Source of the DNA: Beta vulgaris subsp. vulgaris
Lineage: Eukaryota > Streptophyta > Magnoliopsida > Caryophyllales > Amaranthaceae
Assembly: GCF_026745355.1 (NCBI RefSeq)
Contig: NC_079206.1
Coordinates: 32,800,653-32,864,652 of the forward strand
Length of the DNA stretch: 64,000 nt
Reading direction: 5' to 3'
Shown here: in pieces, positions 5,504-28,231 of the stretch
Layout: each line of letters starts with the position of its first letter
Position numbering within the stretch: the stretch's first letter is position 1
Made by a program: the position numbers and the translations under genes
The notes under the pieces: generated by a model
The model's database searches: none
Told to the model about the DNA's origin: nothing
What the model saw: only the letters and a program-made list of their open reading frames with translations

Positions 5504-5507
5504 AATT

Positions 5508-5525
5508 TGGCGCCGTTGCTGGGGA
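5508..5525 (+). promoter_or_regulatory. Primer-binding site, tRNA-Asp type (unit B)
   Basis: Same site as in the other units, with one C-to-T change (GTTGCT instead of GTTGCC). Confidence 0.82.
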
Positions 5526-5590
5526 GGGCAGCGTGTTTGGGTTGTTTATTTGTGTGTTTGTTTCTGACTATTGGTGTGTGAACCCGTCTT

Positions 5591-7843: not shown

Positions 7844-9575
7844 AACTTTTGTGCTTCATGATGTCGAGCTTTCGACTTTAAACTAAGCGCTTCTCGGAAG
7901 GCAACCCGTGTTTTGTATATATTTATTTGGAGTAATTTGTTATGTTTTGTTTTTGTGTGTTTTGGTGTTTGGTTTTTGTAGGAGAACCTTTGAAGCAAAA
8001 CAAGAGAGCTGGAAGGGGTGGATTTCATCACCACTCCCTTCGAATTTAAAAGAGAAAAAAAAAAGGGCCGAGAGCAACTCCGCGACTTCACCGCGGGCGC
8101 GGTCATTTTCTCCGCGGTCGCGGAGCCGCGTATTTCCGCCAGGTAAGTTTTTTTCTTCGCCCTTTTCTCTTCCTTCCTCCTTCCTTCATTTTCGACCCTC
8201 TCTCTCTCTTTTCTCACAACTACTCATCCCCTTACGCCTCCCTTCAATTCCTTCACTCAAATTCCTCTCTTTCACTCATTCAATCCCTTTTTCTCACTCT
8301 CTCATATCATTCCCCACTCAATCATCTTCAAAATCTACACTTTTCTTTTCTTTTTACAAAATCCATTGAAAACCCTAAAATTTGGGGGCTTTTGATTCTT
8401 GGAGTTGGTAGGCAATTAAGGAGTAGTGGAGTGCACTTGGGGTGTTGTTCTTACTTGGTTATTCAATCAATCGCATTGTTCATCCTTCTTTGAGGTAAAC
8501 TTGAACTTTTCATACTCTAATTTGAAAGTTCCCTTGATTAAGAGTTGTGTTTGGTTGATTATTTTTCTTGTGGTGAGTTGTTGTGATTGAGAGTTGTGGA
8601 TAATCACTTGTTGTGTTTGTGGTTACTTATTGTGTTGAGAACTTGTTGTGGTGAAATTTTAAGTTTGGAGTTGGAGGAGTTTCTTGTGTAGTGTGGAAGG
8701 AGTTGTATTGTGTGGTTTGCTCTTGTTGCCTATTGCTTATGGTGGTTACTAGAGGTTCTCGTCTCCCTATTGCTAATTATTTTCATATTTTACACATTGA
8801 GGACAATGTGTCCTTCAAACATGGGGGAGTGAGATGTGGTTGATGTGTATATTTCCTTTAATGAGAAAAAAAAACGAAAAAAAAAATGATGAAAAGAAAT
8901 GAAAAAAAAATTGATGAAAAAACAACAAAAAAATGAGAGATGAAAAAAAAAATGATGATGAGTGGCTAGGTGAAAACCCGGAAGGGCGCCTAGGCAAAAG
9001 GAGAGGACTCTAGTGTCATTTATTTTTCGGAGTGGTGGCATATGAAGGGTGTTTGAAGCGGCGTTTGGGTAGGTCACTCATTGTTGAAATAAGGAGGTTG
9101 TGGTTTAGATGGTGGTAGGTTAGAAAGCCTCTTGTTTTTCATCTTGGAGCCATAAGGGGAGTCGGAGGTTGTTTTAAGAGGTAAGCTCTTGGTTTGATGG
9201 TGTTATTTCGAACCAAGTCTTTGTTTTGAGGGAGTAGTGTGTGAGTTGAGCTTGGGGGATCTAGGACATGTTAGCTCCCTTGCTCTTTGGTTTGTGTGCA
9301 GTTAGCTTGGGTGTGTTGAGGTCATTTCCACCCCCAAGTCAACTATCCTTGTGGATTGTGGAGTGATAAGATGGCTAGAGTTTTGGTACGTTGAGATTAC
9401 TTCCGCCCAAACTTTAGCTAGTTGCGATTCATCATTCATTCGCTTTTGATTGGAGTAATGGTGTTAGGTTTGGATTTTCTGTGAATTTCTCCATGCTTTT
9501 CTTGATAGACCTTGGAGATAGATAGGAGTTAGGATTTTACTCGAGGACGAGTAAAGCTCTAAGCATGGGGGAATT
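7844..9575 (+). other. Non-coding 3' internal region of unit B
   Basis: Same layout as in unit A. The GC-rich cassette (about 8080-8133) is shorter, with only one CCGCGGGCGCGG copy. CT-rich leader, A-rich tract, internal ATGGGGGAG (about 8821) and terminal polypurine tract (about 9563-9575) are all present. No coding frame is credible. Confidence 0.72.
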
Positions 9576-10476
9576 TGATATGCAATGTTTATATGGCATT
9601 CTGGCACTTTTTCACTACTTACTAATGGGATTTGACACAAGTTTTGTAATGATATTGATCTTTTTCTCTACTATGTTGTAATTTGCTCTTTTGAATCATT
9701 TGAGCTCATTTGTGTTGGAGAAAGTTCAAGTTGGAAAGTTAATCTTCCATCTTAGTGTATCAATCGAATCAACCATTTTAATCAACTTGTGAGTTCAATT
9801 CTTCCTTTAAATTGCTTGAATGTTGATGATTCTTCATGTTCTTCATGTTTGATTGTTTTTGTGCTTAAGTTAACTTGATCAATTAACTTTTTGCTTATTA
9901 CAATCTCTACTATCTAGATAATTGTCTGCTTTGAGATTATCTAGGGTTTGTAGTTTATGCCCAATTATCGCACGCTCGTGGATGATTGAGTATAAGAAGA
10001 ATCATTATATAATTTCACATTTGACCGCTTGTGTGAATGCTAGATTAACCTATTGAAATCTCCCTAGTTGTTATCTAATTGCTTAATTAAAACTAGAACG
10101 CTCGGGCTAGGTTGTTACGCCATTAAGGGTCAGATTAGAGCGCTCGCTTAGTCTTACCACTACGTTAGGGGAGATTGAATCTTATGATTCACAATAGGGC
10201 GTTCAAATAACTTAGGTGTTGAATTGTTCAATGATCAAGGGTTGAATTGGTTGTGAAGATTGATTGCCAAGTTCTCGTTTATTATTTGATTTTCCTTGTT
10301 TATGCTTTATTTGTTAAAATTTCATTCCTCAAAACCCCCCCATTGTTACTTAGCACACGTTTAATCAAACCAAACCTACCTTCTCCGTGGATTCGACCCT
10401 TACTTTCTTATACTACGTTTGTGTAGGGTAGTATTGATTTATTTGCGCGTTAGCCGATACGACTTAGGCTTCGCCA
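9576..10476 (+). repeat. LTR C of the array (901 bp, internally deleted)
   Basis: Starts TGATATG and ends CGCCA like the other LTRs but lacks 400 bp. The junction is at about 9741, where AAAGTTA joins directly to ATCTTCC. Compared with LTR B, bases 4369-4768 are missing, including the whole GC-rich cassette and the TATA-like sequence. The break points share only TA, as expected for end-joining or slippage. Confidence 0.9.
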
Positions 10477-10480
10477 AATT

Positions 10481-10498
10481 TGGCGCCGTTGCCGGGGA
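10481..10498 (+). promoter_or_regulatory. Primer-binding site, tRNA-Asp type (unit C)
   Basis: An exact copy of the tRNA-Asp complementary site, four bases after LTR C. Confidence 0.88.
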
Positions 10499-10564
10499 GG
10501 GCAGCGTGTTTGGGTTGTTTTATTTGTGTGTTTATTTCTGATTATTGGTGTGTGAACCCGTCTT

Positions 10565-12857
10565 ATGGTTCACACCCGTGCTGCTCATATTGGATCTTTG
10601 TTGCTTGATTCAGAGATCGAAAGAACACTTTATAGGTTGAGGAAGGAGATTCGGGGTCATTTCCGTGAGTTACCTTTCTACATTGAAGTTGAGGAAGAAG
10701 AGATGCCGCCTAGAGCTGATCCGACATTGAGGGAGCTTTATGTTCCTAATCTTGACCAGGCACCATTGGCCATTCAATATCCAGAGTTTGGGGAGAATGT
10801 TACTTTTGAGCTGAAGTCGGGTCTTGTTCATTTACTGCCAACCTTCCATGGTTTAAATGGGGAAGATCCAATCAAACATCTTGCGGAATTCCATGTTGTT
10901 TGTACGAGTATGCAGCCAAGGGGTGTTACGGAGGATCAAATCAAACTTAGGGCCTTTCCTTTTTCATTGAAGGATAAGGCTAATGATTGGTTCTATCATC
11001 TAAGCCCCAATAGTATCAACACATGGAGGGGGATGAAGCACGCTTTCTTGGAGAAGTTCTTTCCTTCAAGCAGTTGAATGAGCTTAAGAGGGCCATTAGC
11101 AACATTGAGCAAGGTTATGATGAGACTCTTTATGATTACTTAGAGAGGTTTAAGAGGCTCGTTGCTTGTTGTCCCTACCATGGTTTTGCCGAGAAGGATC
11201 TTGTGTTATACTTAGTTGGTGGGCTCCTTCCGGATGAGAGAAGGATGGTGAATGCTGCGTGTGGGGGTAACATTGATAACAAGACCCCACAACAAGCCAT
11301 GGAGCTCATAAGTCAGTTTGCTGAGAGTTCCCGCACTTATTCTAAGAGAAATACCACTGGGGGAGTCAAAGCGGCAAGTTCTACATCATCTTTGGAGTCG
11401 GAGGTGTCCGACCTTAAGGGAATGTTCCGGCAATTTTTAGTGGGTGGTAATCAACAACAAGTGAAGGCTTGTGGTATTTGTTCCAACACCGGCCATCCGA
11501 CTGATTCTTGTCCAACTTTGCAAGAGGAAACCCGAGAGGTGAATGCCGTGGGATATCAAGGGCAAAGGAAGTATGATCCATTCTCAAACTCTTACAATCC
11601 CGGATGGAGAGATCATTCAGCCTTTAGTTACAAGCAAGGGAATCCAACCCCCCAAGGAAATCCGAATTTTCAACAAGGTAATCACCCTCCTCCTCACATG
11701 CCACCATATCAAGCTCAAGGGAAATCCTCTAGCTCCAACTCAATGCCTACCGAGGATATGATCAAGGCCATGGCTCAAAATGTGACTACTATGCAGTCCA
11801 ACATGGTGCAATTTCAACAGGAGACAAGGTCTAGCATTCACAATTTGGAAACACAAGTTGGCCAAATGTCTAGTGTCGTGAATAAACTTGAGGCACAAAG
11901 TTCGGGGAAGCTACCATCTCAAACCAAGGTGAATCCCAAGAGGAATGTGAGTGCCATGACTTTGAGGAATGGCAAAGAGTGATTAATCAAGAGCCCGGCA
12001 AGAGCAAAGTTGTGGAGGAGATTGTAACCAAGGAAGAGGAGGTGGAGGTTCTAGTCCCATCAAAAGAAGCTGAAAAATTGGTGAGTCCTAACTCTCACCA
12101 AGAGGTAAAATCTTTTCCGGATTTCAAACCGGTACCCCCATTCCCAGAATCATTAAAGGACAATCGTAAGCTTGAATCTTCTAAGGATATTTATGAAACG
12201 TTTAGTCAATGTGTCGTAAATATTCCTTTGTTAAAATTGATAAAAGATGTGCCTTTGTATGCTAAGTGGTTGAAGAAAATTTGTTCCATCAAAAAGAAGA
12301 AAAATTTAAAAGGGAAGCAAAAGGTGAAGGTTAGTGAACATGTTTCCGCCGTTTTTCAAAAGAGAATGCCTAAAAAATGCAATGATCCGGGCATGTTCAC
12401 TATACCTATAACCCTTGGTGACACAAAGATTTATAGGGCTATGCTAGATTTGGGAGCCTCCATTAATGTGCTTCCTTATTCCTTATATGAGTCTGTAGAA
12501 CTTGGTGAATTGCTTCCTACTAATGTTGTCATACAATTAGCGGATCGCTCCACTTCCATTCCTAGAGGTGTATTGAAAGATGTTCTAGTGGAAGTTGATA
12601 AGATGAATTTTCCTGCTGATTTTTATGTAATTAACATGGAGCATGATAGGCATTCCGCCCCTATTCTTTTAGGGAGGCCGTTCTTGAAGACGGCTAATGC
12701 TAGGATTGATTGTGGCACCGGTTCTTTGACCATGCAGTTTGATGGTCAAAACGTTGAGTTTAAAATGCATGATGATATGGGATGTAAACAAGATCACTCT
12801 ATCTATTCTATTGATGTGGTTAAGCCGAGTGTTCATGATGTGTTCGATGTGAGGTAA
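10565..12857 (+). pseudogene. gag-protease of array unit C, nearly intact
   Basis: Best-preserved gag-protease copy. The frame opens at MVHTRAAHIG. It carries an N-terminal segment, the capsid domain (about residues 80-230), a CCHC knuckle CGICSNTGHPTDSC (near 11467-11508), a Gln/Asn/Pro-rich linker, a basic KKKKNLKGKQKVKV stretch and an aspartic protease with DLGAS (near 12448) and ILLGRPFL (near 12665). Two lesions are visible. One A is lost at about 11072 (AAGCAGTTG where other units have AAGCAAGTTG). The frame also stops at about 11980 (AAAGAGTGATTAATC), where an overlapping frame resumes at 11979. Family members place gag and protease in one long frame. No RT or integrase follows. Confidence 0.88.
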
Positions 12858-14593
12858 AACTTTTGTGCTTGCATGATGTCGAGCTTCCGACTTTAAACTA
12901 AGAGCTTCTCGGGAGGCAACCCGTGTTTTGTATATATTTTATTTGGAGTTAAGTTATTATGTTTTGTTTTTGTGTGTTTTGGTGTTTTGGTTTTTGTAGG
13001 AGAACCTTTGAAGCAAAACAAGAGAGTTGGAAGGGGTGGGTTTCATCACCACTCCCTTCGAATTTAAAAGAGAAAAAAAAAAGGGCCGAGAGCAACTCTG
13101 CGACTTCACCGCGGGCGCGGAATCCTTCCGCGGTCGCGGAGCCGCGTATTTCCGCCAGGTAAGTTTTTTTCTTCGCCCTTTTCTCTTCCTTCCTCCTTCC
13201 TTCATTTTCGACCCTCTCTCTCTCTTTTCTCACAACTACTCATCCCCTTACGCCTCCCTTCAATTCCTTCACTCAAATTCCTCTCTTTCACTCATTCAAT
13301 CCCTTTTTCTCACTCTCTCATATCATTCCCCACTCAATCATCTTCAAAATCTCCACTTTTCTTTTCTTTTTACAAAATCCATTGAAAACCCTAAAATTTG
13401 GGGGCTTTTGATTCTTGGAGTTGGTAGGCAATTAAGGAGCAGTGGAGTGCACTTGGGGTGTTGTTCTTACCTGGTTAGTCAATCAATCGCATTGTTCTTC
13501 CTTCTTTGAGGTAAACTTGAACTTTTCATACTTTAATTTGAAAGTTCCCTTGATTAAGAGTTGTGGTTGGTTGATTATTTTTCTTGTGGTGAGTTATTGT
13601 GATTGGGAGTTGTGGATAATCACTTGTTGTGTTTGTGGTTACTTATTGTGTTGAGAACTTGTTGTGGTGAAATTTTAAGTTTGGAGTTGGAGGAGTTTCT
13701 TGTGTAGTGTGAAAGGAGTTGTATTGTGTGGTTTGCTCTTGTTGCCTATTGCTTATGGTGGTTACTAGAGGTTCTCGTTTCCCTATTGCTAATTATTTTC
13801 ATATTTTACACATTGAGGACAATGTGTCCTTCAAGCATGGGGGAGTGAGATGTGGTTGATGTGTATATTTCCTTTAATAAAAAAAATGAAAAAAAAAAGA
13901 AAAAATTATGAAAAAAAATGAAAAAAAAATGATGAAAAAACAACAAAAAAATGAGAGATGAAAAAAAAGATGATTATGAGTGGCTAGGTGAAAACCCGGA
14001 AGGGCGCCTAGGCAAAAGGAGAGGACTCTAGTGTCATTTATTTTTCGGAGTGGTGGCATATGAAGGGTGTTTGAAGCGACGTTTGGGTAGGTCACTCATT
14101 GTTGAAATAAGGAGGTTGTGGTTTAGATGGTGGTAGGTTAGAAAGCCTCTTGTTTTTCATCTTGGAGCCATAAGGGGAGTCGGAGGTTGTTTTAGGAGTT
14201 ATGCTCTTGGTTTGATGGTGTTATTTCGAACCAACGCTTTGTTTTGAGGGAGTAGTGTGTGAGTTAAGCTTGGGGGATCTAGGACATGTTAGCTCCCTTG
14301 CTCTTTGGTTTGTGTGCAGTTAGCTTTGGTGTGTTGAGGTCATTTCCACCCCCAAGTCAACTATCCTTGTGGATTGTGGAGTGATAAGATGGCTAGAGTT
14401 TTGGTGCGTTGAGATTACTTTCGCCCAAACTTTAGCTAGTTGCGATTCATCATTCATTCGCTTTTGATTGGAGTAATAGTGTTAGGTTTGGATTTTCTGT
14501 GAATTTCTCCATGCTTTTCTTGATAGACCTTGGAGATAGATAGGAGCTAGGATTTTACTCGAGGACGAGTAAAGGTCTAAGCATGGGGGAATT
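12858..14593 (+). other. Non-coding 3' internal region of unit C
   Basis: Same layout as unit A. The GC cassette (about 13098-13150) is the shortest form. It lacks the GGTCATTTTCTCC spacer and joins CCTTCCGCGG directly to TCGCGGAGC. Internal polypurine-like GCATGGGGGAG lies at about 13836 and the terminal tract at about 14581-14593. Confidence 0.72.
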
Positions 14594-15896
14594 TGATATG
14601 CCATGTTTATATGGCATTTCTGACACTTTTTCACTACTTACTAATGGGATTTAACACAAGTTTTGTAATGATATTGATCTTTTTCTCTACTATGTTGTAA
14701 TTTGCTCTTTTGAATCATTTGAGCTCATTGGTGTTGGAGAAAGTTCAAGTTGGAAAGTTAGCATGTCGAAGAAACTCTTTGAAGAGTTATCATAGTGAAG
14801 CAAGGAAGTGAAATGCGTGCTTCATGAGTATTTTTGGTATGACTAAGTCCTATAAGCATGGGAGATGAGAAGCTACGGGCAACCTCCGCGGTCGCGGGAG
14901 AATTCAATGCGGCCGCGACGAATTTTGGCAGAAAACTACCGTGAGCATCTCCGCGACCTCACTGTGGTCGCGGACCCCCTCCGCGGTCGCGGTGCTTTCC
15001 CCCACGGTCGCAGAGCCCTGAAACGAGGATTTCGACTTTTCGTCTTCCCCTGTTTTGCTGATTAAAAGAACATTTCGTCTTTTGTGTTTAGGATCATTTT
15101 GCATCTGTTTTAGAGAGGATTTCGAAATAAAAATTGTAATCCTTTATATTATGGAGAGCTAATCTTCCATCTTGGTGTATCAATCGAATCAACCATTTTA
15201 AGCAACTTGTGAGTTCAATTCTTCCTTTAAATTGCTTGAATGTTGATGATTCTTCATGTTCTTCATGTTTGATTGTTTTTGTGCTTAAGTTAACTTGATC
15301 AATTAACTTTTTTCTTATTACAATCTCTACTATCTAGATAATTGTCTGCTTTGAGATTATCTAGGGTTTGTAGTTTATGCCCAATTATCGCACGCTCGTG
15401 GATGATTAAGTATAAGAAGGATCATTATATAATTTCGCATTTGACCGCTTGTGTGAATCCTAGATTATCCTATTGAAATCGCCCTAGTTGTTATCTAATT
15501 GCTTAATTAAACCTAGAACACTCGGGCTAGGTTGTTACGCCATTAAGGGTCAGATTAGAGCGCTCGCTTAGTCTTACCGCTACGTTAGGGGAGATTGAAT
15601 CTTATGATTCACAATAGGGTGTTCAAGTAACTTAGGTGTTGAATTGTTCAATGATCAGGGGTTGAATTGGTTGTGAAGATTGATTGTCAAGTTCTCGTTT
15701 ATTATTTGATTTTCCTTGTTTATGCTTTATTTGTTAAAATTTCATTTCTCAAAACCCCCGCATTTTCACTTAGCACACGTTTAGTCAAACCAAACCTACC
15801 TTCTCCGTGGATTCGAACCTTACTTCCTTATACTACGTTTGTGTAGGGTAGTATTGATTTATTTGCGCGTTAGCCGATACGACTTAGGCTTCGCCA
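14594..15896 (+). repeat. LTR D of the array (complete, 1303 bp)
   Basis: Full-length LTR, TGATATG to CGCCA, shared between units C and D. The GC cassette is at about 14876-15018. Only scattered substitutions separate it from LTR B. Confidence 0.9.
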
Positions 15897-15900
15897 AATT

Positions 15901-15918
15901 TGGCGCCGTTGCCGGGGA
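15901..15918 (+). promoter_or_regulatory. Primer-binding site, tRNA-Asp type (unit D)
   Basis: An exact copy of the site. The CACTA element begins only 11 bases downstream, separating this primer site from its gag. Confidence 0.88.
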
Positions 15919-15939
15919 GGGCAGCGTGCACTACTACAT

Positions 15940-16170
15940 TTTGAAGCAATTGCAACGGTCTAATGCAACAGTTGACCATAAAGCAACGGTCTATTGCAAC
16001 GACATGTGCTAATGCAACATAATTTTGCAACGGACAGTGCTATTGCAACGACTATTGCAACAGGTAGTGCTATTGCAACAACTTATTGCAACGGTTAAAG
16101 TGAACCGTTGCATTAAAAGGTTAAACGCAACAGCATTTTAATCGATTGCAACGGACGATCCAATAGCTAA
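15940..16170 (+). repeat. Left subterminal repeats of the CACTA element
   Basis: The motif TTGCAACGG, with variants such as ATGCAACA and the inverse CCGTTGCA, occurs about every 15-30 bases. CACTA elements normally carry such clusters within a few hundred bases of each end as transposase-binding sites. Confidence 0.8.
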
Positions 16171-16548
16171 AGTCTAAAATTTTTGGCCATACGGCCCATA
16201 CACGTGCTCATGACTATTGATTGCCCTCCGGTATTTGACACAAGCACACAGCCACAACACATACAATCAAAGATGAAGGGGAATCCCTAATTCGGTCCTA
16301 AACTCCTCATACTCGTCGGCTTCTCTTATTCCTCGCCGGGATATGCGCGCGAAGGGGAATCTGGTGTATTGCTCGTCGGCTTCTCTTAACCGTCGTCGGA
16401 ACAATTGCAAAGAGGAAGGCGGTTTAATTGTTCGTCGGCTTCTCTTAAACCTCGCTGGAACAACTAAGCGAAGAGAGAAAGAGGTGGGGAAAATAATTTT
16501 TGTTAGTTTCTTGACGAATGTGCTTATCAAAGATGTAATCTCTTGGTT

Positions 16549-16642
16549 ATGGCTGAGAGACGAGAGTCGAAGCCTCCTGGAGATTCTGAGTGGCTGTGCA
16601 AGTTTTTCTCGCCTGTCATCTTGGGCGTGCTTGTTGTTAGAG
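16549..16642 (+). pseudogene. Captured first exon of an unrecognised gene
   Basis: An ATG opens a short frame, MAERRESKPPGDSEWLC, followed by a hydrophobic stretch (FFSPVILGVLVV). It ends at AGAG followed by GTTAAT, a plausible splice donor. The preceding 290 bases look like a plant 5' leader and include three imperfect copies of CGTCGGCTTCTCTTA (near 16316, 16376 and 16434). I do not recognise the protein. It could be the start codon exon of any fusion transcript made from this element. An alternative is a chance frame in leader sequence. Confidence 0.45.
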
Positions 16643-17959
16643 GTTAATTTCTCTCTCTCATCTGAATTTTTAAGTTCTGCCATCCGTGTTTCCATCTTCT
16701 AGCTGTCAACTACCTGTTTGATTAGGGATCTGTAATGTTCAAGGTGCAGAATGTAAATGGATTTATTAGAAATTGATTTGCTTAGACGAGAGTAGTCAGC
16801 TTCTGGAGGTGATAGAGCAAGTCTATTTAGGTTGAAATTGTTTAGGATTGAATCTTGACGAATTTTGAGCTTATTTTGCCGTTAGTTGATTTGGTCCATG
16901 GCTTATTGTATCTTTTTTTGCTTTCTAAGCCTCTGATTGACTTCTGGCTCTCATTTTCTGTTATTAATGTAGCTATTTGCTTTATCGAATTCTCATATTG
17001 TAAGGATAAATCATCTTTTAAACATATGAGTCGCCATCTGAGTGTAATAACACCGTAGCATTAGTTATTAAGAATTATGTAGTGATGAGTGACTAATACT
17101 AAGAATATTTTTACATATATATCTTGGTGCCTTCAATTAAGCTTCCCTTCAATCTTCTCTACTGATTTCTGTTGGAAATCTTGCTGAATTAGAATGAGTT
17201 CAAGTTCCGTCGCTTAGAAAGATACAATGCCAGAAAGGCTTTACAAATTTATCTCATTAACTATCTACAGATTTACCGTTTTGAAATTCTGTAAGTTGGT
17301 AAGGAGAAAATACTATATGTAAATTAATAATTATTTAAAAGCTGGCCTTTTCATGTTTAAGTTATCTAGGAACTATTGTATGGTAGTAAATTTATGAATC
17401 CCTTCTGAAATTTGGGAAATTTTCACTGTTATATCCAAAATTTACACTATCATATTCCTTGAGCTATAGGTTCATTCATGCACCAATGAAGGGCAGATGA
17501 GTAACACCTTGAATATTTTTCGAGATAAAGGAACTTGAACTTTTGATGCCAATGACCTCTACCCTAACAAAATTAATGGGTTTCTTTGTTTCTAAGTTCA
17601 CGAACTTCCAAATGAACCGCCCTCCCTGCTGTAACAATTCAACAACCTTGCTTATATTCTACTTTCCCATGACATATATGTTTGACTCTGTGAGGTTGAT
17701 TTTAACTCACTGTAAACTAATTTAAGGATAAGTGCGAAAGAGGTAGAATCCAAACAGAAGAGCATGATGTTGATCCTAACTCACCTTAAACTAATAAGTG
17801 CAAAAGAGATAGAACCCAAGCAGAAGAGCATGAGACTTTGAGTTAAATAAGAAACACTTCCTCTTGATAAATTTTTTGGTGATACGAAGCTTATATGAAC
17901 AGTCATTTCTGATTTTTAACCCTTTGATGCTCGAACATTGTAAAATTTGTGATGTCAAA
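16643..17959 (+). other. AT-rich interior of the CACTA element, no gene recognised
   Basis: About 1.3 kb of AT-rich, intron-like sequence between the unknown first exon and the START fragment. A short duplicated stretch (TAAGTGCGAAAGAGGTAG near 17730 and TAAGTGCAAAAGAGATAG near 17796) is visible. I see no coding. Confidence 0.5.
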
Positions 17960-18336
17960 AATGTGAAAGTGTCGATGTTCATCAGAATGGCCCAACTGTA
18001 TATCGCAGTCGAACGGTGTTTATACAACTGCTGAGTTGGTGAGAGATTTTTTTTGGGATGATGAATTTCGTCCAAAATGGGATCCTATGCTCACATATTT
18101 CAATATATTGGAGGATTGTTCAGATACCGGAAGAATGATCGTCCACTGGATCAAAAAGGTGTGTTTACCTTTCTTTTTGGTTTATTATTTTATTGCCGAG
18201 ATCTGCCGCTTCCGTAGAGTCTAAACTTTCCAGTTATGTCTTATATGCGCAGTTCCCCTTTTTCTATAGTGACCGAGAATATATTATTGCTCGAAGAATA
18301 TGGGAGGCTGGAAGAACATATTACTGCATCACGAAG
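17960..18336 (+). pseudogene. Captured START-domain (CP5-like) gene fragment, two exons
   Basis: Two exons of a lipid-binding START-domain protein of the plant CP5-like group. The first ends at 18158. It contains GPTVYRSRTVF, then, after a frameshift near 18017-18021, TAELVRDFFWDDEFRPKWD and a stretch ending MIVHWIKK. The second (18253-18336) reads FPFFYSDREYIIARRIWEAG and ends TYYCITK. The intron between them starts GTGTGT and ends CAG, and a donor (GTATGA) follows the second exon. The WDDEFRPKWD and SDREYIIxRRIWE motifs are characteristic of this family's START domain. Only part of the domain is present, and the frameshift rules out a normal product. Confidence 0.82.
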
Positions 18337-19198
18337 GTATGATATATTGAATTTACTTTTCGACTAATAACATACTATTGCATAGTATATAGTAGAATAA
18401 AGGCCTTCAGAAGTCTAATGTGTTCTCTTCACCTATCTTATCTCAATTGAATTTCTTAGACCTTATTCGACTTGTTCACCCTAATTTCACCTTATATTTT
18501 AACCGTATTAGACCTGATCAAACCTAGAACTTATTTTTAAGGTGAAGAGAACCCGATAGCTACATCGAAAATCATTTGTTTTAATCCAAAGAGATGCTAA
18601 CCAATATTCAAAATATGGGACTTCGTTTTCCTTTATTTTTATTGTCGAGAGGTAAGCTAAGCTCCCAAGGCGTGCGTTACTTCATTTAGTCAGTACTGGT
18701 CCCCGTTTATCCCAATCTGGCTTTTCGTTAGTGCATAATCCGCTAAGGAGAGGTCTTCCCCAAGGAATATAATGGATATATCATCCAAGTCGAAGGACTT
18801 CATTTTGTCACTTGAAGCGTGTACCAATTAATACTCTAAGACTACAAACTTGTAATTAGTGGAAGTAGGGGTCAATCCCACGGACATAAATGTACTTTTA
18901 AAATTGGTTTCCCCTTTATCAACAAGCTTTATGTCAGTTAAGAGGTATCTAAGGGAGTCATTCTCTTGGATTTACTCTCAAAAAGGAAAATAAAATTTAT
19001 AAGAAAAGGTTGTTTGGATTTCAGTGATTCCCCCATGAGAGCATAATATTTCTAAAGTTGTCTACTTGTGTAGGGTTGATGATATCTTGTATATTTAGTC
19101 CATATCTGTTCAATGCTCTGGTGCGTTAAATTTTAAGGTAATTCACATACAGACCTCTATAGCCTCAGCACAAATGCTTTTTTTTTATGGCTCTGCAG
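18337..19198 (+). other. Spacer between captured gene fragments, with a possible small MITE
   Basis: Non-coding. TGTTCTCTTCACCT (18421-18434) and its near-inverse AGGTGAAGAGAACC (18540-18553) could bound a 130-bp MITE. The stretch around 18840-18900 (AGTAGGGGTCAATCCCACGG) resembles a motif common in plant LTR retrotransposons, but no element can be bounded. Confidence 0.35.
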
Positions 19199-20268
19199 GA
19201 TGTTGATTATGAGGCCACAATGTCCACCAAACTTTCTATTGCTAAGAAGATTTTCTCGCTGGAAAAGGATCTGATACTTAAATCCAGCTCCTTCCAGGAG
19301 TTCTTTTCTGAGAATGAGGTTCTTCGAGGCACCCTTTAGATACTTATTGAAATGATATTTTTATTCTCTAGTTTTGGATTTTGGGTCTTGCCATCTAACC
19401 CACTTTTTTATGATGAAAAGGAGTGGCTAAAACCTTATGCAGCCTTCTGTTTTCTGCGGGATTTCTTTGAAACCTCGGATCATAGTCAGTGGGGTCGTTT
19501 TTCCCATTTTTTGAAGAGAAGGTAAACAAGTTTTTGCTTTTTGATTGTTTGTTTCAATTACAACCTTTAAACAAGACGCTGGCTTGTAGGGCATGTATGA
19601 AGAGTGATGGAGAGGCCTGTCTACACTTTTAATTAAAGCTACTATCTGATTGTGAGTAGTATATAACAGAAGGTTTCTGCTTCTGCAGCTTGAGAAACTT
19701 GTCTCAGAAGACAGTCCCCACTACAGCATCATATGCTTCCACTATTACATACAATATCATTTGCATGTACAAGTGAGTAGAGTGAACTTTATTCCAAGAG
19801 TATGTTATTAGCTGAAATTTGGGTCTTGCTTTCTCATGAAATGATGTAATTGCAGCTATCAGAGGCTGCTGAATATGCAAGGAAAAAAGGAGTGGTGTTG
19901 AAGGGAGACCTCCCAATTGGTGTAGACAGGAACAGTGTTGATACTTGGGTCTATCCAAACTTGTTTCGGATGAACACATCAACTGGAGCACCACCTGATT
20001 ATTTTGATAAAAATGGGCAGAATTGGGGTTTTCCAACTTATAATTGGGAGGAAATGTCAAAAGACAACTATGGATGGTGGCGTGGTCGTTTGACTCAAGT
20101 TTAAGAGACTTCATTGTATTATTATTGTACTCATTAGCTTCTTCAAATATGTGTAGATTTTATGTTAAATCAAATGTTCTCTGTTTTATTTCCCTTGTCT
20201 TAGATGGCGAAGTATTTCACAGCTTATAGAATCGATCATATATTGGGCTTCTTTAGAATTTGGGAACT
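19199..20268 (+). pseudogene. DPE2: Captured fragment of 4-alpha-glucanotransferase DPE2
   Basis: Five consecutive exons of the cytosolic glucanotransferase DPE2 (GH77), which in plants converts maltose from starch breakdown: 19199-19318, 19421-19521, 19689-19772, 19856-20098 and 20204 to about 20268. Introns keep GT and AG ends. Recognisable stretches are DVDYEATMSTKLSIAKKIFS, EWLKPYAAFCFLRDFFETSD, GVVLKGDLPIGVDRNSVDTW and YRIDHILGFFRIWE. The last contains the Asp in RIDH that acts as nucleophile in GH77 enzymes. The copy stops shortly after this, and N-terminal starch-binding and downstream parts are absent. A probable one-base loss near 19510 shifts the end of the second exon. It is a genomic capture rather than a retrocopy, because the introns are present. 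Confidence 0.9.
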
Positions 20269-20476
20269 ACTTATTAAAATGATGAAGTATTTTTATCATC
20301 TTTTTTGTTATTATAATATTGTTGTTGCTAGCTTGTTATACTGCACAAAAGGAACTCCATTGAGAGCTTACTTCTAACCTTGGTTCTGTCCCGTGATGAT
20401 AGATTAGTCCCTTGTCTTAATGTATATTATTATAACCATATGTCATGCTTTATTAAACTTTTGTATAATTCTATAG

Positions 20477-20561
20477 GTATATCAAGAAGAGGAAAATGTA
20501 TGACATGAAGAACAATTGCGGTCGCACGAATGACAATTTTTGGGCGGTGGATCTCGCTTAA
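20477..20561 (+). pseudogene. Exon-like piece of unknown origin in the CACTA element
   Basis: After an acceptor-like CTATAG, one frame reads YIKKRKMYDMKNNCGR then TNDNFWAVDLA and a stop codon. It may be the last exon of a captured gene or of the element's own lost transposase. I do not recognise it, and it is short enough to be chance. Confidence 0.3.
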
Positions 20562-20939
20562 AAGTGGAGCATGGTTTTGGAATTAATTAGGCAACTAGCT
20601 AGTAATCTTGTTTTTTGGTAATATATTTACGCTAGAAGTATATATGTTTTTGTGCATCTATATTAGGTTGGAAATAAATATATTAGGTGATCAAACTTCT
20701 GTTGGGATTTGATATATATACGATAGTATTATATTAAGTACTTGGTGTTGGAAATTGTCAAACGATTGGATGATCTTAGCTTGAATATATTTATCGATCT
20801 TTTTGGAATATAAAATTTTATCATTATGTTTATTTGGATTTTTTTTTGAATTATTTCAGCTTTGCATCAACATCAAGTTAATAGGTTAATATATACATAT
20901 TTATAGATTCGTCGTTGTAGTAGCCATAATATGGAAAAA

Positions 20940-21310
20940 ATTTGCAACGGTTCATGGGATACCATAGAGGTGTTGCCTTAAACATTGAAATGTGTTGCAT
21001 CATATGTAATGCAACGGTTCATGGGATACCATAGAGGTGTTGCATTAGACTATGAAATATGTTGCATCATATGTAATGCAACGGTTCATTGGATACCATA
21101 GAGGCGTTGCATTAGACAATAAACATGAGTTGCATTAGTACTATTGCAACGGTTATTTGGTGTTGCAACTGCCCGTTGCATTAGGTGTCCAAGATTGTTG
21201 CATTAGAGCTAATGCAAGGGCAGCAACAGCAACGGTTGTCTGACCGTTGCAATAGCTCTATTGCAACGGTTGAGTCTATTGCAACGGTTTTTAGGGGTTG
21301 CAATAGCTCA
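20940..21310 (+). repeat. Right subterminal repeats of the CACTA element, 67-bp units
   Basis: GCAACGGTTCAT starts at 20944, 21011 and 21078, giving three tandem 67-bp units that include GGATACCATAGAGG and GTTGCATCATATGT. Further GCAACGG/CCGTTGC motifs follow up to the end. This end is more ordered than the left end. Confidence 0.85.
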
Positions 21311-21382
21311 TTTATGTAGTAGTGGTGTTTGGGTTGTTTATTTGAGTGTTTGTTTCTGATTATTGGTGTGTGAACCCGTCTT

Positions 21383-22265
21383 ATGGTTCACACCCGTGCT
21401 TCTCATATTGGATCTTTATTGCTTGATTCAGAGATCGAAAGAACACTTTATAGGTTGAGGAAGGAGATTCGGGGTCATTTCCGTGAGTTACCTTTCTACA
21501 TTGAAGTTGAGGAAGAAGAGATGCCGCCTAGAGCTGATCTGACATTGAGGGAGCTTTCTGCTCCTAATCTGGACCAGGCACCATTGGGCATTCAATATCC
21601 AGAGTTTGGGGATAATGTTACTTTTGAGCTGAAGTCGGGTCTTGTTCATTTACTGCCAAGCTTCCATGGTTTAAATGGGGAAGATCCAATCAAACATCTT
21701 GTGGAATTCCATGCTGTTTGTACGAGTATGCAGCCAAGGGGTGTTACGGAGGATCAAATCAAACTTAGGGACTTTCCTTTTTCATTGAAGGATAAGGCTA
21801 ATGATTGGTTCTATCATCTATGCCCCAACAGTATCAACACATGGAGGGGGATGAAGCAAGCTTTCTTGGAGAAGTTCTTTCCTTCAAGCAAGTTGAATGA
21901 GCTTAAGAGGGCCATTAGCAACATTGAACAAGGTTATGATGAGATTCTTTATGATTACTTAGAGAGGTTTAAGAGGCTCATTGCTTGTTGTCCCTACCAT
22001 GGTTTTGCCTAGAAGGATCTTGTGTTATACTTAGTTGGTGGGCTCCTTCCGGATGAGAGAAGGATGGTGAATGCTGCTTGTGGGGGTAACATTGATAACA
22101 AGACCCCATAACAAGCCATGGAGCTCATAAGTGAGTTTGTTGAGAGTTCCCGCACTTATTCTAAGAGAAATACCACTCGGGGAGTTAAAGCGGCAAACAT
22201 CATCTTTGGAGTCGGAGGTATCCGACCTTAAGGGAATGTTCCGGCAATTTTTGGTGGGTGGTAAT
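21383..22265 (+). pseudogene. gag N-terminal part of array unit D
   Basis: The first part of the unit D gag, continuing after the CACTA insertion. It opens at MVHTRASHIG and holds the capsid domain. A TAG at 22010-22012 (other units have GAG: GCCGAGAAGG) stops the frame, a second stop (CCCCATAAC near 22108) follows, and four or five bases are missing near 22197. The gag is then interrupted at GGTGGTAAT by the LTR element at 22266, and its C-terminal part resumes at 26826. Confidence 0.88.
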
Positions 22266-24293
22266 TGTAATTGTCCTGTTTTTAAGAGCGTTTATTTAAA
22301 AGATGATTATGTTTATTAAGTTAATTATGTTCCGAAAATCATATTTTCATTTGAGTTGTGGAGTGTTATTTTTATTTGTCTTGTTGTAATATATTCGTTA
22401 TTTTAATTTTTTATGGAGTTATTCTTGTATTATTTTATATATCGCGTTTCGTTAGCAATTTATGGATTTGTGTTTAAACAATTATAAAACCAAAGTCGGT
22501 TTTCATCCATGTTTCTTTTTCATTCCTTTGTCGGTTTGGAAAGTAAAACCCAACATTTCCTTTTCATTTCTTTCCTTTCGGTGGGATAAACCCAAAAGCA
22601 TAAACCCCCCCCCCCTTTCTTGAAAAAACCCCGTAAAACCCCAAACCCCAAGTGTTGCTCCCTTGCTTCGTGTTTCTCCTCTGCATCGCCGTCGTTACTA
22701 AAGCTTGCCGGAGCTCCTCTCGTATGCGCTGTTGTTCGGCCGTCTTCTTCCCACCGCAGCTGTGTGTGGTGCTCGTTATCTCTCTCTCTCGTCGCTCTCT
22801 GGTGGTTCGCGGTCGATGTTGTCGCGGTTGCTGTTGTCGCTCGCCGGTGAAAGGTAATCGTCGCGGAGTTGTTGTTGCTACTGCCATGGTTTTTCCCTCC
22901 CCTGTTCTGGTTCGCTGCTGCTCTCCCCGCCGTGTGTTGCTGGTGTTGTTGGTGGTGCCGGTTGTTGTTGCTGTCAGAGCCAGCCCCTCCCCTTGACGTG
23001 TCTTCCCTGCTCTTGAAGCAGAGGTGGTGTTCTTGCTTTCCCTTTCCTCTTGTAGTGTTATTGTTTGGTATTATTGTTTGATGTTATTGTTAGTGTTGTT
23101 GTTGGTGATGGATGTTGTTAAGTTGTTGTTGTTGTTTGTTGTTGTTGGGTTGTTGTTGTTTTAGTTTAGTTGTGGAGTTGTTGGTGGTGGTGATGGGTGG
23201 TTGTTGTTGAGCTTTTGTTGACGATACCTTGTGGTGAGTGGTGTAGAATTAGTTTAGGGAATTCAGTTTTATGCGATTGAAGTTAAGAACGTGAAGGATT
23301 CTCATATTGGTAATTGTTTATGGTTCCATTTCCTAGTATGAATTAGTTTGAGAATAATTGTCAAACATTATTGTTGATAAGGATGGAGCAAAGAGTAATT
23401 AGTTTAGTTAGAAAATGGTTAGTTAGATGAGTTTCTCATTTATCGAGCAATTTATCAACTATTGTCGTTGTTGTAAGGTGGATTGTGATTCGGAGTTGGT
23501 GATCAAATTGCCAATGGTCTTGGCGGCTTATTATTAAGGATTTGGAATGCGTTCAGGTAACTTTTATGTTCAGTAAAATGTATTACTTATGCCCATGTGT
23601 GTGAATTTCTTTATTATGTTTTCGTAAATAACTTCGTACTATGGCCATAGATATGAATGTGATGATAAAATGTCATTGATTGAATATGAATATGCAAATG
23701 TTTTGCTGGCTTAGTTTATGAACTGAAAATAGAAAGTGGGCAAGGTATGGGTGGAGGATGGTTACTCTTTTGACCTGATACGGTCGGCTACGCTCCATAA
23801 CGAACCTTGGGGGTAGTATTGCTGGACTCCATAACGAACCTTGGAGGCAGTGTTTGTCCTTTGTCCGAAGCCTGTACTTGCCACTGATTGTTTAAGAGAG
23901 TGAGCTATGCCAGCGTTGTAACGAAAAGAAATGATTTGAGAATAAAATGTTTTAACGGGCTGAAGTAAAGGTTACGAGTTTTCCACACATTTTGGAATTT
24001 TGTTTGTTTTGTATTTTCTTCTCTGAATTTGCAGGTTTGGTATCAAGAGCTCGGAATTCGAAGTGGAGCAAGATCAAGGTTTCATAGTGGCTTAAGGATT
24101 AAGCTTGTATTTTAGATAGCTGATTCAGGAATAGTTATTTATAGTTCGTTGTATATACAATTTGGGAATATTGCTCGAGATATTGGTGTATTAAGGATAT
24201 TTTTCCGCTGCGATTTTATTAATTAAGATTTGCATTCTAGTTTATGGTTGTTGAGTGTGTTTCGCTAGCAGCTCGGAATAGCGGGCTGTTAAA
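22266..24293 (+). repeat. 5' LTR of the non-coding LTR element (2028 bp)
   Basis: Starts TGTAATTGTCCTG and ends GGGCTGTTAAA, so it ends in AA rather than CA. It contains a GTT-rich stretch (about 23080-23170). The cysteine- and valine-rich short frames near 22650-23080 are repeated in the other LTR and look like translation of GTT/CTG-rich DNA, not genes. Confidence 0.88.
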
Positions 24294-24788
24294 GATGGTA
24301 TCAGAGCAACCTTGCGACCGTATGCCTAGTTGGCTACCTAGCGAGGGTAAAAGGTCTTTGGGATAGTTCGAAATTGATTTGGGACTATTAGTGGTTGAGA
24401 ATTGATGATCGGAAATTAGGAATGTTGAAGCTTGAGTGTATAAGTGTTTGCGCTTTTGCGTGTGCTATATGAATTTGTTTATGTAAAGATGTAGTGTCTT
24501 GTATTGTTGATGATGATATGTGTTTCGAGAAAAATTGTATTATTTTGGTTAAGTAAAAGAATTTCAAACGAGATCTCTATAAATGAGATGACATGAATCC
24601 TTTGCTGAAATTTTGCCCCTTTTGTTTTCTTTGCTCCTCGATTCTAATATTGAGTTGAAGTGGAGATACAAAAGCTGATGGTAGAATTGAGGTTGGATTA
24701 CTGATATCTTATGAGTTTGAGATTTTGGTTTTACTTAAATTTTTATTTTCAAGTTTTGAGGACGAAACTTTAAATAAGGGTGGTAGTA
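24294..24788 (+). other. Internal region of the non-coding LTR element
   Basis: About 495 bp between the LTRs with the primer site at its start and the polypurine-like tract at its end. No coding frame of note is present. Confidence 0.8.
24296..24307 (+). promoter_or_regulatory. Primer-binding site, initiator tRNA-Met type
   Basis: TGGTATCAGAGC lies two bases after the 5' LTR and is the standard initiator-Met primer site of many plant LTR retrotransposons. This differs from the tRNA-Asp site of the host array. Confidence 0.9.
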
Positions 24789-26820
24789 TGTAATAGCCCT
24801 GTTTTTAAGAGCGTTTATTTAAAAGATGATTATGTTTATTAAGTCAATTATGTTCCGAAAATCTTATTTTCATTTGAGTTGTGGAGTGTTATTTTTATTT
24901 GTCTTGTTGTAATATATTTGTTATTTTAATTTTTTATGGAGTTATTCTTGTATTATTTTATATATCGCGTTTCGTTAGCAATTTATGGATTTGTGTTTAA
25001 ACAATTATAAAACCAAAGTCGGTTTTCATCCATGTTTCTTTTTCATTCCTTTGTCGGTTTGGAAAGTAAAACCCAACATTTCCTTTTCATTTCTTTCCTT
25101 TCGGTGGGATAAACCCAAAAGCATAAACCCCCCCCCCCTTTTCTTGAAAAACACACCGTAAAACCCCAAACCCCAAGTGTTGCTCCCTTGCTTCGTGTTT
25201 CTCCTCTGCGTCGCCGTCGTTACAAAAGCTTGCCGGAGCTCCTCTCGTATGCGCTGTTGTTCGGCCGTCTTCCTCCCACCGAAGCTGTGTGTGGTGCTCG
25301 TTATCTCTCTCTCTCGTCGCTCTCTGGTGGTTCGCGGTCGATGTTGTCGCGGTTGCTGTTGTCGCTCGCCGGTGAAAGGTAATCGTCGCGGAGTTGTTGT
25401 TGCTACTGCCGTGGTTTTTCCCTCCCCTGTTCTGGTTCGCTGTTGCTCTCCCCGCCGTGTGTTGCTGGTGTTGTTGGTGGTGCCGGTTGTTATTGCTGTC
25501 GGAGCCAGCCCCTCCCCTTGACGTGTCTTCCCTGCTCTTGAAGCAGAGGTGGTGTTCTTGCTTTCCCTTTCCTCTTGTAGTGTTATTGTTTGTTGTTATT
25601 GTTTGATGTTATTGTTAGTGTTGTTGTTGGTGATGGATGTTGTTAAGTTGTTGTTGTTGTTTGTTGTTGCTGGGTTGTTGTTGTTTTGTTTTAGTTGTGG
25701 AGCTGTTGGTGGTGGTGATGGGTGGTTGTTGTTGAGCTTTTGTTGACGATACCTTGTGGTGAGTGGTGTAGAATTAGTTTAGGGAATTCAGTTTTATGCG
25801 ATTGAAGTTAAGAACGTGAAGGATTCTCATATTGGTAATTGTTTATGGTTCCATTTCCTAGTATGAATTAGTTTGAGAATAATTGTCAAACATTATTGTT
25901 GATAAGGATGGAGCAAAGAGTAATTAGTTTAGTTAGAAAATGGTTAGTTAGATGAGTTTCTCATTTATCGAGCAATTTATCAACTATTGTCGTTGTTGTA
26001 AGGTGGATTGTGATTCGGAGTTGGTGATCAAATTGCCAATGGTCTTGGCGGCTTATTATGAAGGATTTGGAATGCGTTCAGGTAACTTTTATGTTCAGTA
26101 AAATGTATTACTTATGCCCATGTGTGTGAATTTCTTTGTTATGTTTTCGTAAATAACTTCGTAATATGGCCATAGATATGAATGTGATGATAAAATGTCA
26201 TTGATTGAATATGAATATGCAAATGTTTTGCTGGCTTAGTTCATGAACTGAAAATAGAAAGTGGGCAAGGTATGGGTGGAGGATGGTTACTCTTTTGACC
26301 TGATACGATCGGCTACGCTCCATAACGAACCTTGGGGGTAGTATTGCTGGACTCCATAACGAACCTTGGAGGCAGTGTTTGTCCTTTGTCCGAAGCCTGT
26401 ACTTGCCACTGATTGTTTAAGAGAGTGAGCTATGCCAGCGTTGTAACGAAAAGAAATGATTTGAGAAATAAAATGTTTTAACGGGCTGAAGTAAAGGTTA
26501 TGAGTTTTCCACTCATTTTTGGAATTTTGTTTGTTTTATATTTTCTTCTCTGAATTTGCAGGTTTGGTATCAAGAGCTCGGAATTCGAAGTGGAACAAGA
26601 TCAAGGTTTCATAGTGGCTTAAGGATTAAGCTTGTATTTTAGATAGCTGATTCAGGAATAGTTATTTATAGTTCGTTGTATATACAATTTGGGAATATTG
26701 CTCGAGATATTGGTGTATTAAGGATATTTTTCTGCTGCGATTTTATTAATTAAGATTTGCATTCTAGTTTATGGTTGTTGATTGTGTTTCGCTAGCAGCT
26801 CGGAATAGCGGGCTGTTAAA
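24789..26820 (+). repeat. 3' LTR of the non-coding LTR element (2032 bp)
   Basis: Matches the 5' LTR over its whole length with scattered base changes (for example TGTAATAGCCC here against TGTAATTGTCC there). The start here matches the expected inverse of the LTR end better, so the 5' copy has mutated. Confidence 0.88.
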
Positions 26821-26825
26821 GTAAT

Positions 26826-28231
26826 CAACAACAAGTGAAGGCTTGTGGTATTTGTTCCAACACCGGCCATCCGACCGATTCTTGTCCAACTTTGCAAGAG
26901 GAAACCCAAGAGGTGAATGCCGTGGGATATCAAGGGCAAAGGAAGTATGATCCATTCTCAAACTCTTACAATCCCGGATGGAGAGATCATCCGGCCTTTA
27001 GTTACAAGCAAGGGAATCCAACCCCCCAAGGAAATCCGAATTTTCAACAAGGTAATCACCCTCCTCCTCACATGCCACCATATCAAGCTCAAGGGAAATC
27101 CTCTAGCTCCAACTCAATGTCTACCGAGGATATGATCAAGGCATTGGCTCAAAATGTGACAACTATGCAGTCCAACATGGTGCAATTTCAACAGGAGACA
27201 AGGTCTAGCATTCACAATTTGGAAACACAAGTGGGCCAAATGTCTAATGTCGTGAATAAACGTGAGGCACAAAGTTCGGGAAAGCTACCATCTCAAACCG
27301 AGGTGAATCCCAAGAGGAATGTGAGTGCCATGACTTTCAGGAGTGGCAAAGAGGTTATTAATCAAGAGCCCGGCAAGAGCAAAGTTGTGGAGGAGATTGT
27401 AACCAAGGAAGAGGAGGTGGAGGTTCTAGTCCAATCAAAAGAAGCTGAAAAATTGGTGAGTCCAAGCTCTCACCAAGAGGTAAAATCTTTTCCGGATTTC
27501 AAACCGGTAGTCCCATTCCCCGAAGCATTAAAGGACAATCGTAAGCTTGAATCTTCTAAGGACATTTATGCAACGTTTAGTCAATGTGTCGTAAATATTC
27601 CTTTGTTAAAATTGATAAAAGATGTGCCTTTGTATGCTAAGTGGTTGAAGGAAATTTGTTCCATCAAAAAGAAGAAAAATTTAAAAGGGAAGCAAAAGGT
27701 GAAGGTTAGTGAACATGTTTCCGCCGTTTTTCAAAAGAGAATGCCTAAAAAATGCAATGATCCGGGCATGTTCACTATACCTATAACCCTTGGTGACACA
27801 AAGATTGATAGGGCTATGCTAGATTTGGGAGCCTCCATTAATGTGCTTCCTTATTCCTTATATGAGTCCGTAGAACTTGGTGAATTGCTTCCTACTAAGT
27901 TGTCATATAATTAGCGGATCGGTCCACTTCCATTCCTAGAGGTGTATTGAAAGATGTTCTAGTGGAAGTTGATAAGATGACTTTTCCTGCTGATTTTTAT
28001 GTAATTAACATGGAGCATGATAGGCATTCCGCCCCTATTCTTTTAGGGAGGCCGTTCTTAAAGACGGCTAATGCTAGGATTGATTGTGGCACCGGTTCTT
28101 TGACCATGCAGTTTGATGGTCAAAACGTTGAGTTTAAAATGCATGATGCCATGGGATGTAAAGAGGATCACTCTATCTATTCTATTGATGTGGTTAAACC
28201 GAGTGTTCATGATGTGTTCGATGTGAGGTAA
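26826..28231 (+). pseudogene. gag C-terminal part and protease of array unit D
   Basis: Continues unit D gag after the LTR-element insertion: zinc knuckle CGICSNTGHPTDSC, the Pro/Gln/Asn-rich linker, the basic KKKKNLKG stretch, then protease with DLGAS near 27825. The frame is open from the insertion to about 27914, where one base is lost (CTACTAAGTTG against CTACTAATGTTG) and a TAA replaces CAA at 27907. The protease C-terminal part, with ILLGRPFL, continues in another frame to a stop at 28229-28231. Confidence 0.88.

What the first reader, a model, noticed from the sequence alone, without database searches (positions are those of the whole stretch)
15929..21324. CACTA element carrying DPE2, START-domain and other gene pieces in one orientation
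The element has clean CACTA ends and a 3-bp duplication. It holds introns and exons of at least two unrelated genes, DPE2 (including the RIDH nucleophile segment) and a CP5-like START gene, plus two unknown exons. All are on the plus strand with splice sites kept, so a fusion transcript starting at MAERRESK (16549) is conceivable. It could also produce small RNAs against the parental genes. Capture by CACTA elements is known in plants; this combination is, to my knowledge, not described.
Basis: partly seen in the sequence, partly recalled or inferred. Interest (0 to 1): 0.8.

Follow-up and report, generated by a model that had tools for sequence, protein, structure and literature searches.

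The report
Jumping gene carrying several plant genes
A cut-and-paste plant transposon has copied pieces of at least four ordinary genes from different places in the genome and carries them side by side; transposons that do this are known, and this is a new, finely resolved example from a family that has done it repeatedly.

Summary
Window 15929-21324 is a complete non-autonomous CACTA element: 11-bp inverted ends, GTG target duplication, and the empty site still present in three paralogous retrotransposon units of the same window. All but 28 of its 5396 bp align to a source: a family 5' end, a C2 gene's first exon, a 43-bp C10 match (weak), a CCCH zinc-finger gene intron (C11), START-gene exons/introns (C3), DPE2 exons (another C3 locus) and a family 3' end. 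Donors remain in place. The START-DPE2 joint occurs once in the 569-Mb genome. Sisters share the ends but carry other genes.
Corrections: START and DPE2 exons carry frame-changing deletions; MAERRESK is not the donor's N-terminus; the 20477 exon belongs to the transposon family; one DPE2 splice donor is altered. The shared orientation is not significant: in this element 4 of 4 readable pieces are sense (p 0.125), in the family 9 of 11 (p 0.07). Splicing the kept exons would give a 190-codon open chimeric frame, roughly 5% likely by chance and noticed post hoc. No expression data exist here. Precedents: soybean Tgm-Express1, Pack-CACTAs. New member of a known kind.

The parts
15926..15928 (.). 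left copy of target site duplication GTG
15929..15939 (+). 5' terminal inverted repeat CACTACTACAT
15929..16512 (+). family 5' module (subterminal TGCAACGG repeats, then three ~60-bp GC-rich repeats at 16313-16473); about 82-84% identical to sisters L040 and L043
16516..16848 (+). piece copied from C2:30647315-30647653 (gene of unknown function): first exon and part of first intron; 9 mismatches in 326 aligned bases, plus a 7-bp insertion and a 13-bp deletion in the exon
16549..16642 (+). exon with ATG (reads MAERRESK...; donor reads MAESRSLLEILRESFAWLCKFF...), 5' splice GT at 16643
16853..16895 (+). 43-bp match (93%) to C10:11302357-11302399; candidate fifth donor, weak
16911..17126 (+). intron piece copied from a CCCH zinc-finger gene at C11:47205779-47205991 (91%; 17 mismatches in 213)
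17122..19170 (+). START-domain gene piece copied from C3:34004764-34006820 (96%)
17986..18158 (+). START exon A, 4-bp deletion at 18021
18253..18336 (+). START exon B
19168..20268 (+). DPE2 piece copied from C3:54455417-54456521 (97%); begins in an intron, ends inside an exon just after ...RIDHILGFFRIWEL
19199..19318 (+). DPE2 exon 1 of the piece
19421..19521 (+). DPE2 exon 2 of the piece, 1-bp deletion at 19511
19689..19772 (+). DPE2 exon 3 of the piece
19856..20098 (+). DPE2 exon 4 of the piece; 5' splice site CAA|GTTTA where the donor has CAG|GTTTG
20204..20268 (+). DPE2 exon 5, cut by the capture joint
20269..20274 (.). 6 bp of unassigned filler between DPE2 and the 3' module
20275..21324 (+). 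family 3' module shared by 27 fetched sister places (L012-L038); includes a splice acceptor ending at 20476, a short open exon to 20560 and subterminal repeats
21314..21324 (-). 3' terminal inverted repeat
21325..21327 (.). right copy of target site duplication GTG

Best explanation
It is a non-autonomous, multi-donor Pack-CACTA transposon. Shown: it has CACTA ends, a 3-bp target duplication and an empty site; it holds copied genomic DNA (introns included) from four well-matched donor loci plus one weak one; it sits in a family whose members keep the two ends and differ in cargo. Inferred: it inserted here by cut and paste, using transposase supplied in trans by a related autonomous element that binds the terminal and subterminal TGCAACGG repeats. 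Inferred: the cargo was taken up as DNA copies, in more than one step, when a break or gap inside an element was repaired by copying from unlinked gene loci and switching template at 3-5 bp of microhomology or with a few bases of filler. Most likely it makes no useful protein; if it is transcribed, its RNA would be a spliced mixture of foreign exons, as in soybean Tgm-Express1, or feed small RNAs.
For: Ends, duplication and empty site. Donors and exact break points. START/DPE2 joint shares GCA (3 bp), CCCH/START matches overlap by 5 bp (TCTTG), DPE2/3' module has 6 bp of filler. No internal exact TIR at any joint. Family with different cargo: 4 of 4 fetched full sisters (L040-L043) have both ends and 3 of 4 a 3-bp duplication; ALDH, RFC3, ferrochelatase, topoisomerase and kinase pieces in sisters. 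Mobility with cargo: L015, L016 and L020 share 1.5 kb of cargo at 95.6-96.7% and have different bases after the 3' end. Stepwise gain: a 283-bp RFC3 piece abuts the 3' module in L042, but in L040 other DNA including the ALDH exons lies between them. Relaxed constraint: exons differ from the donors at 10 of 864 sites, the remaining sequence at 74 of 2284 (p 7e-4), as expected if only the donor exons are constrained.
Against: No autonomous partner with these ends was identified, and the sisters' putative own ORF had no Pfam match. The tandem-insertion and re-excision model for Pack-CACTA is not excluded for the older pieces. The C11 piece is more diverged (17/213) than START non-exon DNA (58/1790; p 0.0018), so the true donor may be a paralogue. 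No RNA evidence of any kind.
Confidence: 0.93

Rival explanations
1. The captured exons form a working chimeric gene: C2 exon, START and DPE2 exons are spliced and translated, and the frame is kept by selection.
For: In the present sequence the chain 16549-16642, 17986-18158, 18253-18336, 19199-19318, 19421-19521 reads 190 codons with START and DPE2 in their native frames; the same chain in donor state stops after 45 codons, so the 4-bp deletion at 18021 opened it. With the family 3' exon, two of the splice chains tried end at 218 and 246 codons.
Against: Random indels give such a frame in 4.6-5.8% of trials when sizes vary and 14% with the observed sizes at random places; noticed post hoc. 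The 1-bp deletion at 19511 breaks DPE2, only 233 codons result if all exons are joined, and a 5' splice site is altered. START and DPE2 domains are partial.
Confidence: 0.05
2. The element mainly makes small RNAs that silence DPE2 and the START gene.
For: About 97% and 96% identity to the donors over 1.1 and 2.0 kb.
Against: No small-RNA data here; the pieces are sense relative to each other and no inverted copy of cargo appeared in the repeat scan. No excess of donor C/G to element T/A changes, 31 against 25, p 0.50, so no mark of heavy methylation.
Confidence: 0.08
3. The cargo was gathered by tandem insertion and joint re-excision of neighbouring elements (the published Pack-CACTA model), not by template switching in repair.
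For: It is the model proposed for Pack-CACTA (sections read; review passages); family ends are conserved and the cargo is internal.
Against: At least three unlinked donors joined with microhomology or filler, and no exact TIR (or one-mismatch TIR at a joint) inside the element.
Confidence: 0.25
4. Assembly artefact or an ordinary gene cluster.
For: None found.
Against: Exact CACTA ends, duplication and empty site; donors at separate loci and the joint present once; sister elements with the same ends.
Confidence: 0.01

Closest known systems
Tgm-Express1 of soybean (PMC1947982; abstract, Discussion section and passages seen)
   Same: CACTA element of 5.7 kb with five unrelated host gene fragments that keep exons and introns; chimeric spliced transcripts and ORFs demonstrated there.
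   Different: It sits in an intron of an expressed gene (F3H) that drives transcription; this one sits in a retrotransposon between the primer-site region and gag. Different genes, different plant. No transcript shown here.
Pack-CACTA elements of Arabidopsis and maize (PMC8903248; two sections and passages seen)
   Different: TIR is CACTACTACAT rather than the CACTACAA used there for Arabidopsis. Joints here point to template switching rather than the tandem-insertion model proposed there.
CACTA (Jozin) elements of Chenopodium with captured gene fragments (PMC8978399; passages seen)
   Same: CACTA elements with captured host gene fragments, in Amaranthaceae.
   Different: Those are transposase-bearing elements with single captures in the 5' region; here there is no recognised transposase and at least four donors.
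Pack-TIRs of animals (PMC8277862; passages seen)
   Same: Microhomology at break points, gap filling or fork switching proposed.
   Different: Animal elements; this is a plant CACTA.

Membership tests
CACTA (En/Spm) superfamily | terminal inverted repeats beginning CACTA | tested here: met
   CACTACTACAT / ATGTAGTAGTG
CACTA (En/Spm) superfamily | 3-bp target site duplication | tested here: met
   GTG, with 3 of 3 paralogous empty sites; 3 of 4 sisters have their own 3-bp duplication, L042 does not
CACTA (En/Spm) superfamily | clustered subterminal repeats at both ends | tested here: met
   9 TTGCAACGG in the element, 0 outside
CACTA (En/Spm) superfamily | moved by a TNP2/TNPA-type transposase | not tested
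   no transposase gene in the element; no search for an autonomous partner was run; a putative family ORF in sisters had no Pfam match
Pack-CACTA (Pack-TYPE) | no transposase, carries host gene DNA whose donors remain in the genome | tested here: met
   donors located; Pfam hits on the five cargo/exon peptides given are host-gene families
Pack-CACTA (Pack-TYPE) | family of elements sharing ends | tested here: met
   27 sister places fetched with the 3' module; 4 of 4 full sisters have both ends
Pack-CACTA (Pack-TYPE) | several copies of the element itself | tested here: not met
   the START-DPE2 joint is present once, 14 of 14 candidates scored; the ALDH-carrying sister type has at least 3 copies
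chimeric gene expressed from captured exons (Tgm-Express1-like) | spliced chimeric transcripts | not testable with these tools
   no RNA data
chimeric gene expressed from captured exons (Tgm-Express1-like) | splice sites and frame compatible with a chimeric ORF | tested here: inconclusive
   190-codon open frame, chance 4.6-14% by three nulls; one splice site altered

The most novel reading that the evidence does not exclude
The element is an incipient chimeric gene: a 4-bp deletion after capture opened a continuous reading frame joining a C2 first exon, two START exons and two DPE2 exons to the family's own 3' exon (218-246 codons in two of the splice chains tried), and the family as a whole works as a moving exon trap whose 3' module supplies a last exon and favours sense-oriented captures (9 of 11 readable pieces).
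Probability: 0.06. Interest if true: 0.65.

Novelty: new member of a known kind. Interest (0 to 1): 0.38.

Why it matters
It is an unusually complete dissection of a multi-donor capture: donors, break points, filler and order are resolved to the base, in a family where the same ends carry different cargoes. That makes two open questions testable in one genome: how CACTA elements pick up DNA (template switching versus tandem re-excision), and whether captured exons are ever kept in frame and in sense orientation more often than chance. If the chimeric frame were translated it would be a rare look at a new gene before selection has shaped it.

Tried and rejected
Re-checking the antisense ORFs showed a protein-kinase piece (L037, Pfam 0.0023, below cut-off) and a coiled-coil piece shared by L032 and L037 (no Pfam hit), both antisense. 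Tally: sense START, DPE2, CCCH gene, C2 exon, ALDH, RFC3, ferrochelatase, topoisomerase, MRE11-like (9); antisense 2; two-sided p 0.065. Counting only pieces with a Pfam hit in the piece or its donor: 7 against 1, p 0.070. Not significant. Whether the L037 and L032 antisense pieces lie inside their elements was not settled (no 5' terminal repeat with up to 2 mismatches in the first 1600 bases of these loci). Rows: 151 sense and 153 antisense ORFs of 42 aa or more from 18 loci; 150 and 149 scanned; nine redundant sister loci (L016, L020, L023, L024, L026, L027, L029, L033, L035) and L012, L015, L018, L030 (represented by L042, L040, L043, L041) were left out. Other antisense hits: Beta-TrCP_D 3e-4 (not located), Ycf2 0.0016, DUF6448, DUF6927 and DUF7378 0.004-0.0095, taken as chance; other sense hits NDNF_N 8.5e-4 (3 members) and three at 0.005-0.01, likewise.

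Idea that the 3' module reads in frame from the cargo: dropped, the L042 joint lies in what looks like RFC3 intron. Methylation signature (C to T excess): none. Identity of the C2 gene: no Pfam or PDB match. MRE11 label for the C5 donor of L042 is a recalled motif; Pfam gave nothing and PDB only E 0.13 to a double-strand-break protein chain. CP5-like for the START gene is recalled; tests support START/PCTP only. Host species: nine contigs of 56-72 Mb and 569 Mb in all suggest a beet-like genome; not tested. A DNA search with the L058 unit never got through.
Full report
What was checked. The element is real and its ends are exact. CACTACTACAT starts at 15929, its inverted copy ends at 21324, GTG lies on both sides. 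The surrounding DNA is a tandem array of one LTR retrotransposon; its three other units in the window carry the uninterrupted sequence, and the two flanks overlap there by exactly GTG (104-106, 5533-5535, 10506-10508). The insertion point lies between a conserved TTTGGCGCCGTTGCCGGGGA stretch (which I read, from recall, as the primer-binding region) and the gag-like ORF starting at 21374. TTGCAACGG, the subterminal repeat, occurs 9 times in the element and nowhere else in the window.

What it is made of. A search of the window's own genome (569,194,541 bp, 20 contigs) and of the leftover stretch places all but 28 of 5396 bp (arithmetic). In order: family 5' module (15929-16512); first exon and intron start of a gene at C2:30647315-30647653 (16516-16848); a 43-bp match to C10 (16853-16895, weak); intron of a CCCH zinc-finger gene at C11:47205779 (16911-17126; zf-CCCH E 4e-7 in the donor gene downstream, same strand); START-gene introns and two exons from C3:34004764-34006820 (17122-19170); DPE2 from C3:54455417-54456521 (19168-20268); 6 bp of filler; family 3' module (20275-21324). 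The donors keep their own flanks, so this is copying, not excision. Break points: 3-bp overlap GCA between START and DPE2, 5-bp overlap TCTTG between the CCCH and START matches, small unassigned gaps elsewhere.

Ages. Mismatches to the donors: START 62 of 2044, DPE2 22 of 1098, C2 piece 9 of 326; none of the two differences tested is significant (START against DPE2 p 0.10, C2 piece against START p 1.0). The C11 piece is more diverged, 17 of 213, against 58 of 1790 in START non-exon DNA, p 0.0018: an earlier capture or a paralogous donor. Exons differ less than the rest (10 of 864 against 74 of 2284, p 7e-4; exon 4 was cut one base short in that count), as expected when the donor's exons are constrained and the copy drifts. 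With a recalled rate near 6.5e-9 per site and year the non-exon divergence would mean roughly 2-3 million years; this is only a guide.

Coding state. START exon A has lost 4 bp (18021) and DPE2 exon 2 has lost 1 bp (19511); the C2 exon has a 7-bp insertion and a 13-bp deletion, net in frame, which turns the donor's MAESRSLLEILRESFAWLCKFF into MAERRESKPPGDSEWLCKFF. The splice acceptors and donors of the listed exons are present as AG and GT, but the donor after 20098 has changed at -1 and +5. Spliced in order, the exons give 190 codons through START and DPE2 in native frames, then a shifted DPE2 reading to codon 233; the same chain built from the donors stops after 45 codons. Three random-indel nulls reach such a frame in 14.1%, 5.8% and 4.6% of trials. 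So the fusion ORF is possible and not strong evidence of selection.

The family. 27 sister places with the 3' module were fetched (L012-L038; 40 of 326 candidates were scored, so the family is larger). Four full sisters (L040-L043) have both CACTA ends, three with a 3-bp duplication. Cargo found: aldehyde dehydrogenase exons in L040 (8.6e-11 and 0.0044), RFC3 in L042 (Pfam 1.9e-5, just below its cut-off; PDB RFC3 9.5e-5) with the same piece in L040 (94% over 283 bp), three consecutive ferrochelatase exons in L031 (1.1e-6, 2.1e-6, 0.0014), a topoisomerase piece in L043 (2.7e-4, below cut-off), a C5 gene of MRE11 type by recalled motif in L042. The aldehyde-dehydrogenase-bearing type has at least three copies (L015, L016, L020), so cargo moves with the ends. 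In L042 the RFC3 piece abuts the 3' module; in L040 the ALDH exons lie between, so cargo was gained in steps near the 3' module. The present element's own joint is unique (14 of 14 candidates).

Orientation. In this element 4 of 4 readable pieces are sense, p 0.125 by chance. In the family 9 of 11 are sense, p 0.065; with only Pfam-supported pieces 7 of 8, p 0.070. A kinase piece in L037 and a coiled-coil piece in L032 and L037 run antisense. So a common orientation is a hint, not a finding.

A side result. A part of DPE2 (window 19488-19725 and 20064-20246) recurs at 91-94% identity to the element at C9:33196184 and C3:24980864 inside a shared repeat of about 2.2 kb; in L058 this begins CACTAGTGGAAAAAACC, in L059 TACTAGTGG, and the matching 3' end was not found in the 4.2 kb fetched. 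DPE2 may have been captured twice, by different families.

Comparison with what is known. Soybean Tgm-Express1, 5.7 kb with five gene fragments spliced into chimeric RNAs (PMC1947982: abstract, Discussion and passages), is the nearest functional precedent. Pack-CACTAs with several donor loci are described for maize and Arabidopsis (PMC8903248, sections 9 and 10), gene capture by CACTAs in Chenopodium (PMC8978399, passages), and a 2026 review gives tandem re-excision as the proposed Pack-CACTA mechanism (PMC13317346, passages). The joints here fit microhomology-guided switching, as proposed for animal Pack-TIRs (PMC8277862, passages), better than tandem re-excision. The primary Pack-CACTA paper was not held. 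One full-text search for CACTA with DPE2 found no paper.

Verdict. An ordinary kind of thing in an unusually clear form: a new multi-donor Pack-CACTA. The open, interesting points are the chimeric reading frame and the capture mechanism, both testable.

Noticed in passing
L058:750-2914 (C9) and L059 (C3:24978901-24983100): Two other places carry DPE2 pieces with an internal deletion at CACTAC, inside a shared repeat that in L058 begins CACTAGTGGAAAAAACC; possible second, independent capture of DPE2.
   Followed up: partly
window 1-15928 and 21325-31303: Tandem array of an LTR retrotransposon: 1-5535 matches 10403-15928 at 96.5%, 4759-9741 matches 9732-14760 at 96.5%; gag-like ORFs at 10556 and 21374.
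   Followed up: partly
window 22256-26821: Direct repeats of about 2.04 kb (22256-24294 and 24778-26821, 98.2%) interrupt the retrotransposon body, as a nested LTR element would.
   Followed up: no
window 36066-37206: Tandem repeat with a period of about 171 bp (93.9-95.4% between shifted copies), satellite-like.
   Followed up: no
L040 element 1787-2068 and L042 element 4720-5000: The same RFC3 piece in two sisters at different distances from the 3' module: a record of stepwise cargo gain.
   Followed up: yes
L017, L019, L022, L025, L028, upstream of the 3' module: Sisters carry pieces of a shared ORF (KTKKHRGPTKLVKVHDRTKKERPF...IGPTNEIVQEF), probably the family's own gene by recalled resemblance to plant En/Spm transposase proteins; no Pfam match.
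   Followed up: partly
window 31860-32852 (- strand): 330-aa open frame that looks like a LINE-type reverse transcriptase (recalled, not searched).
   Followed up: no
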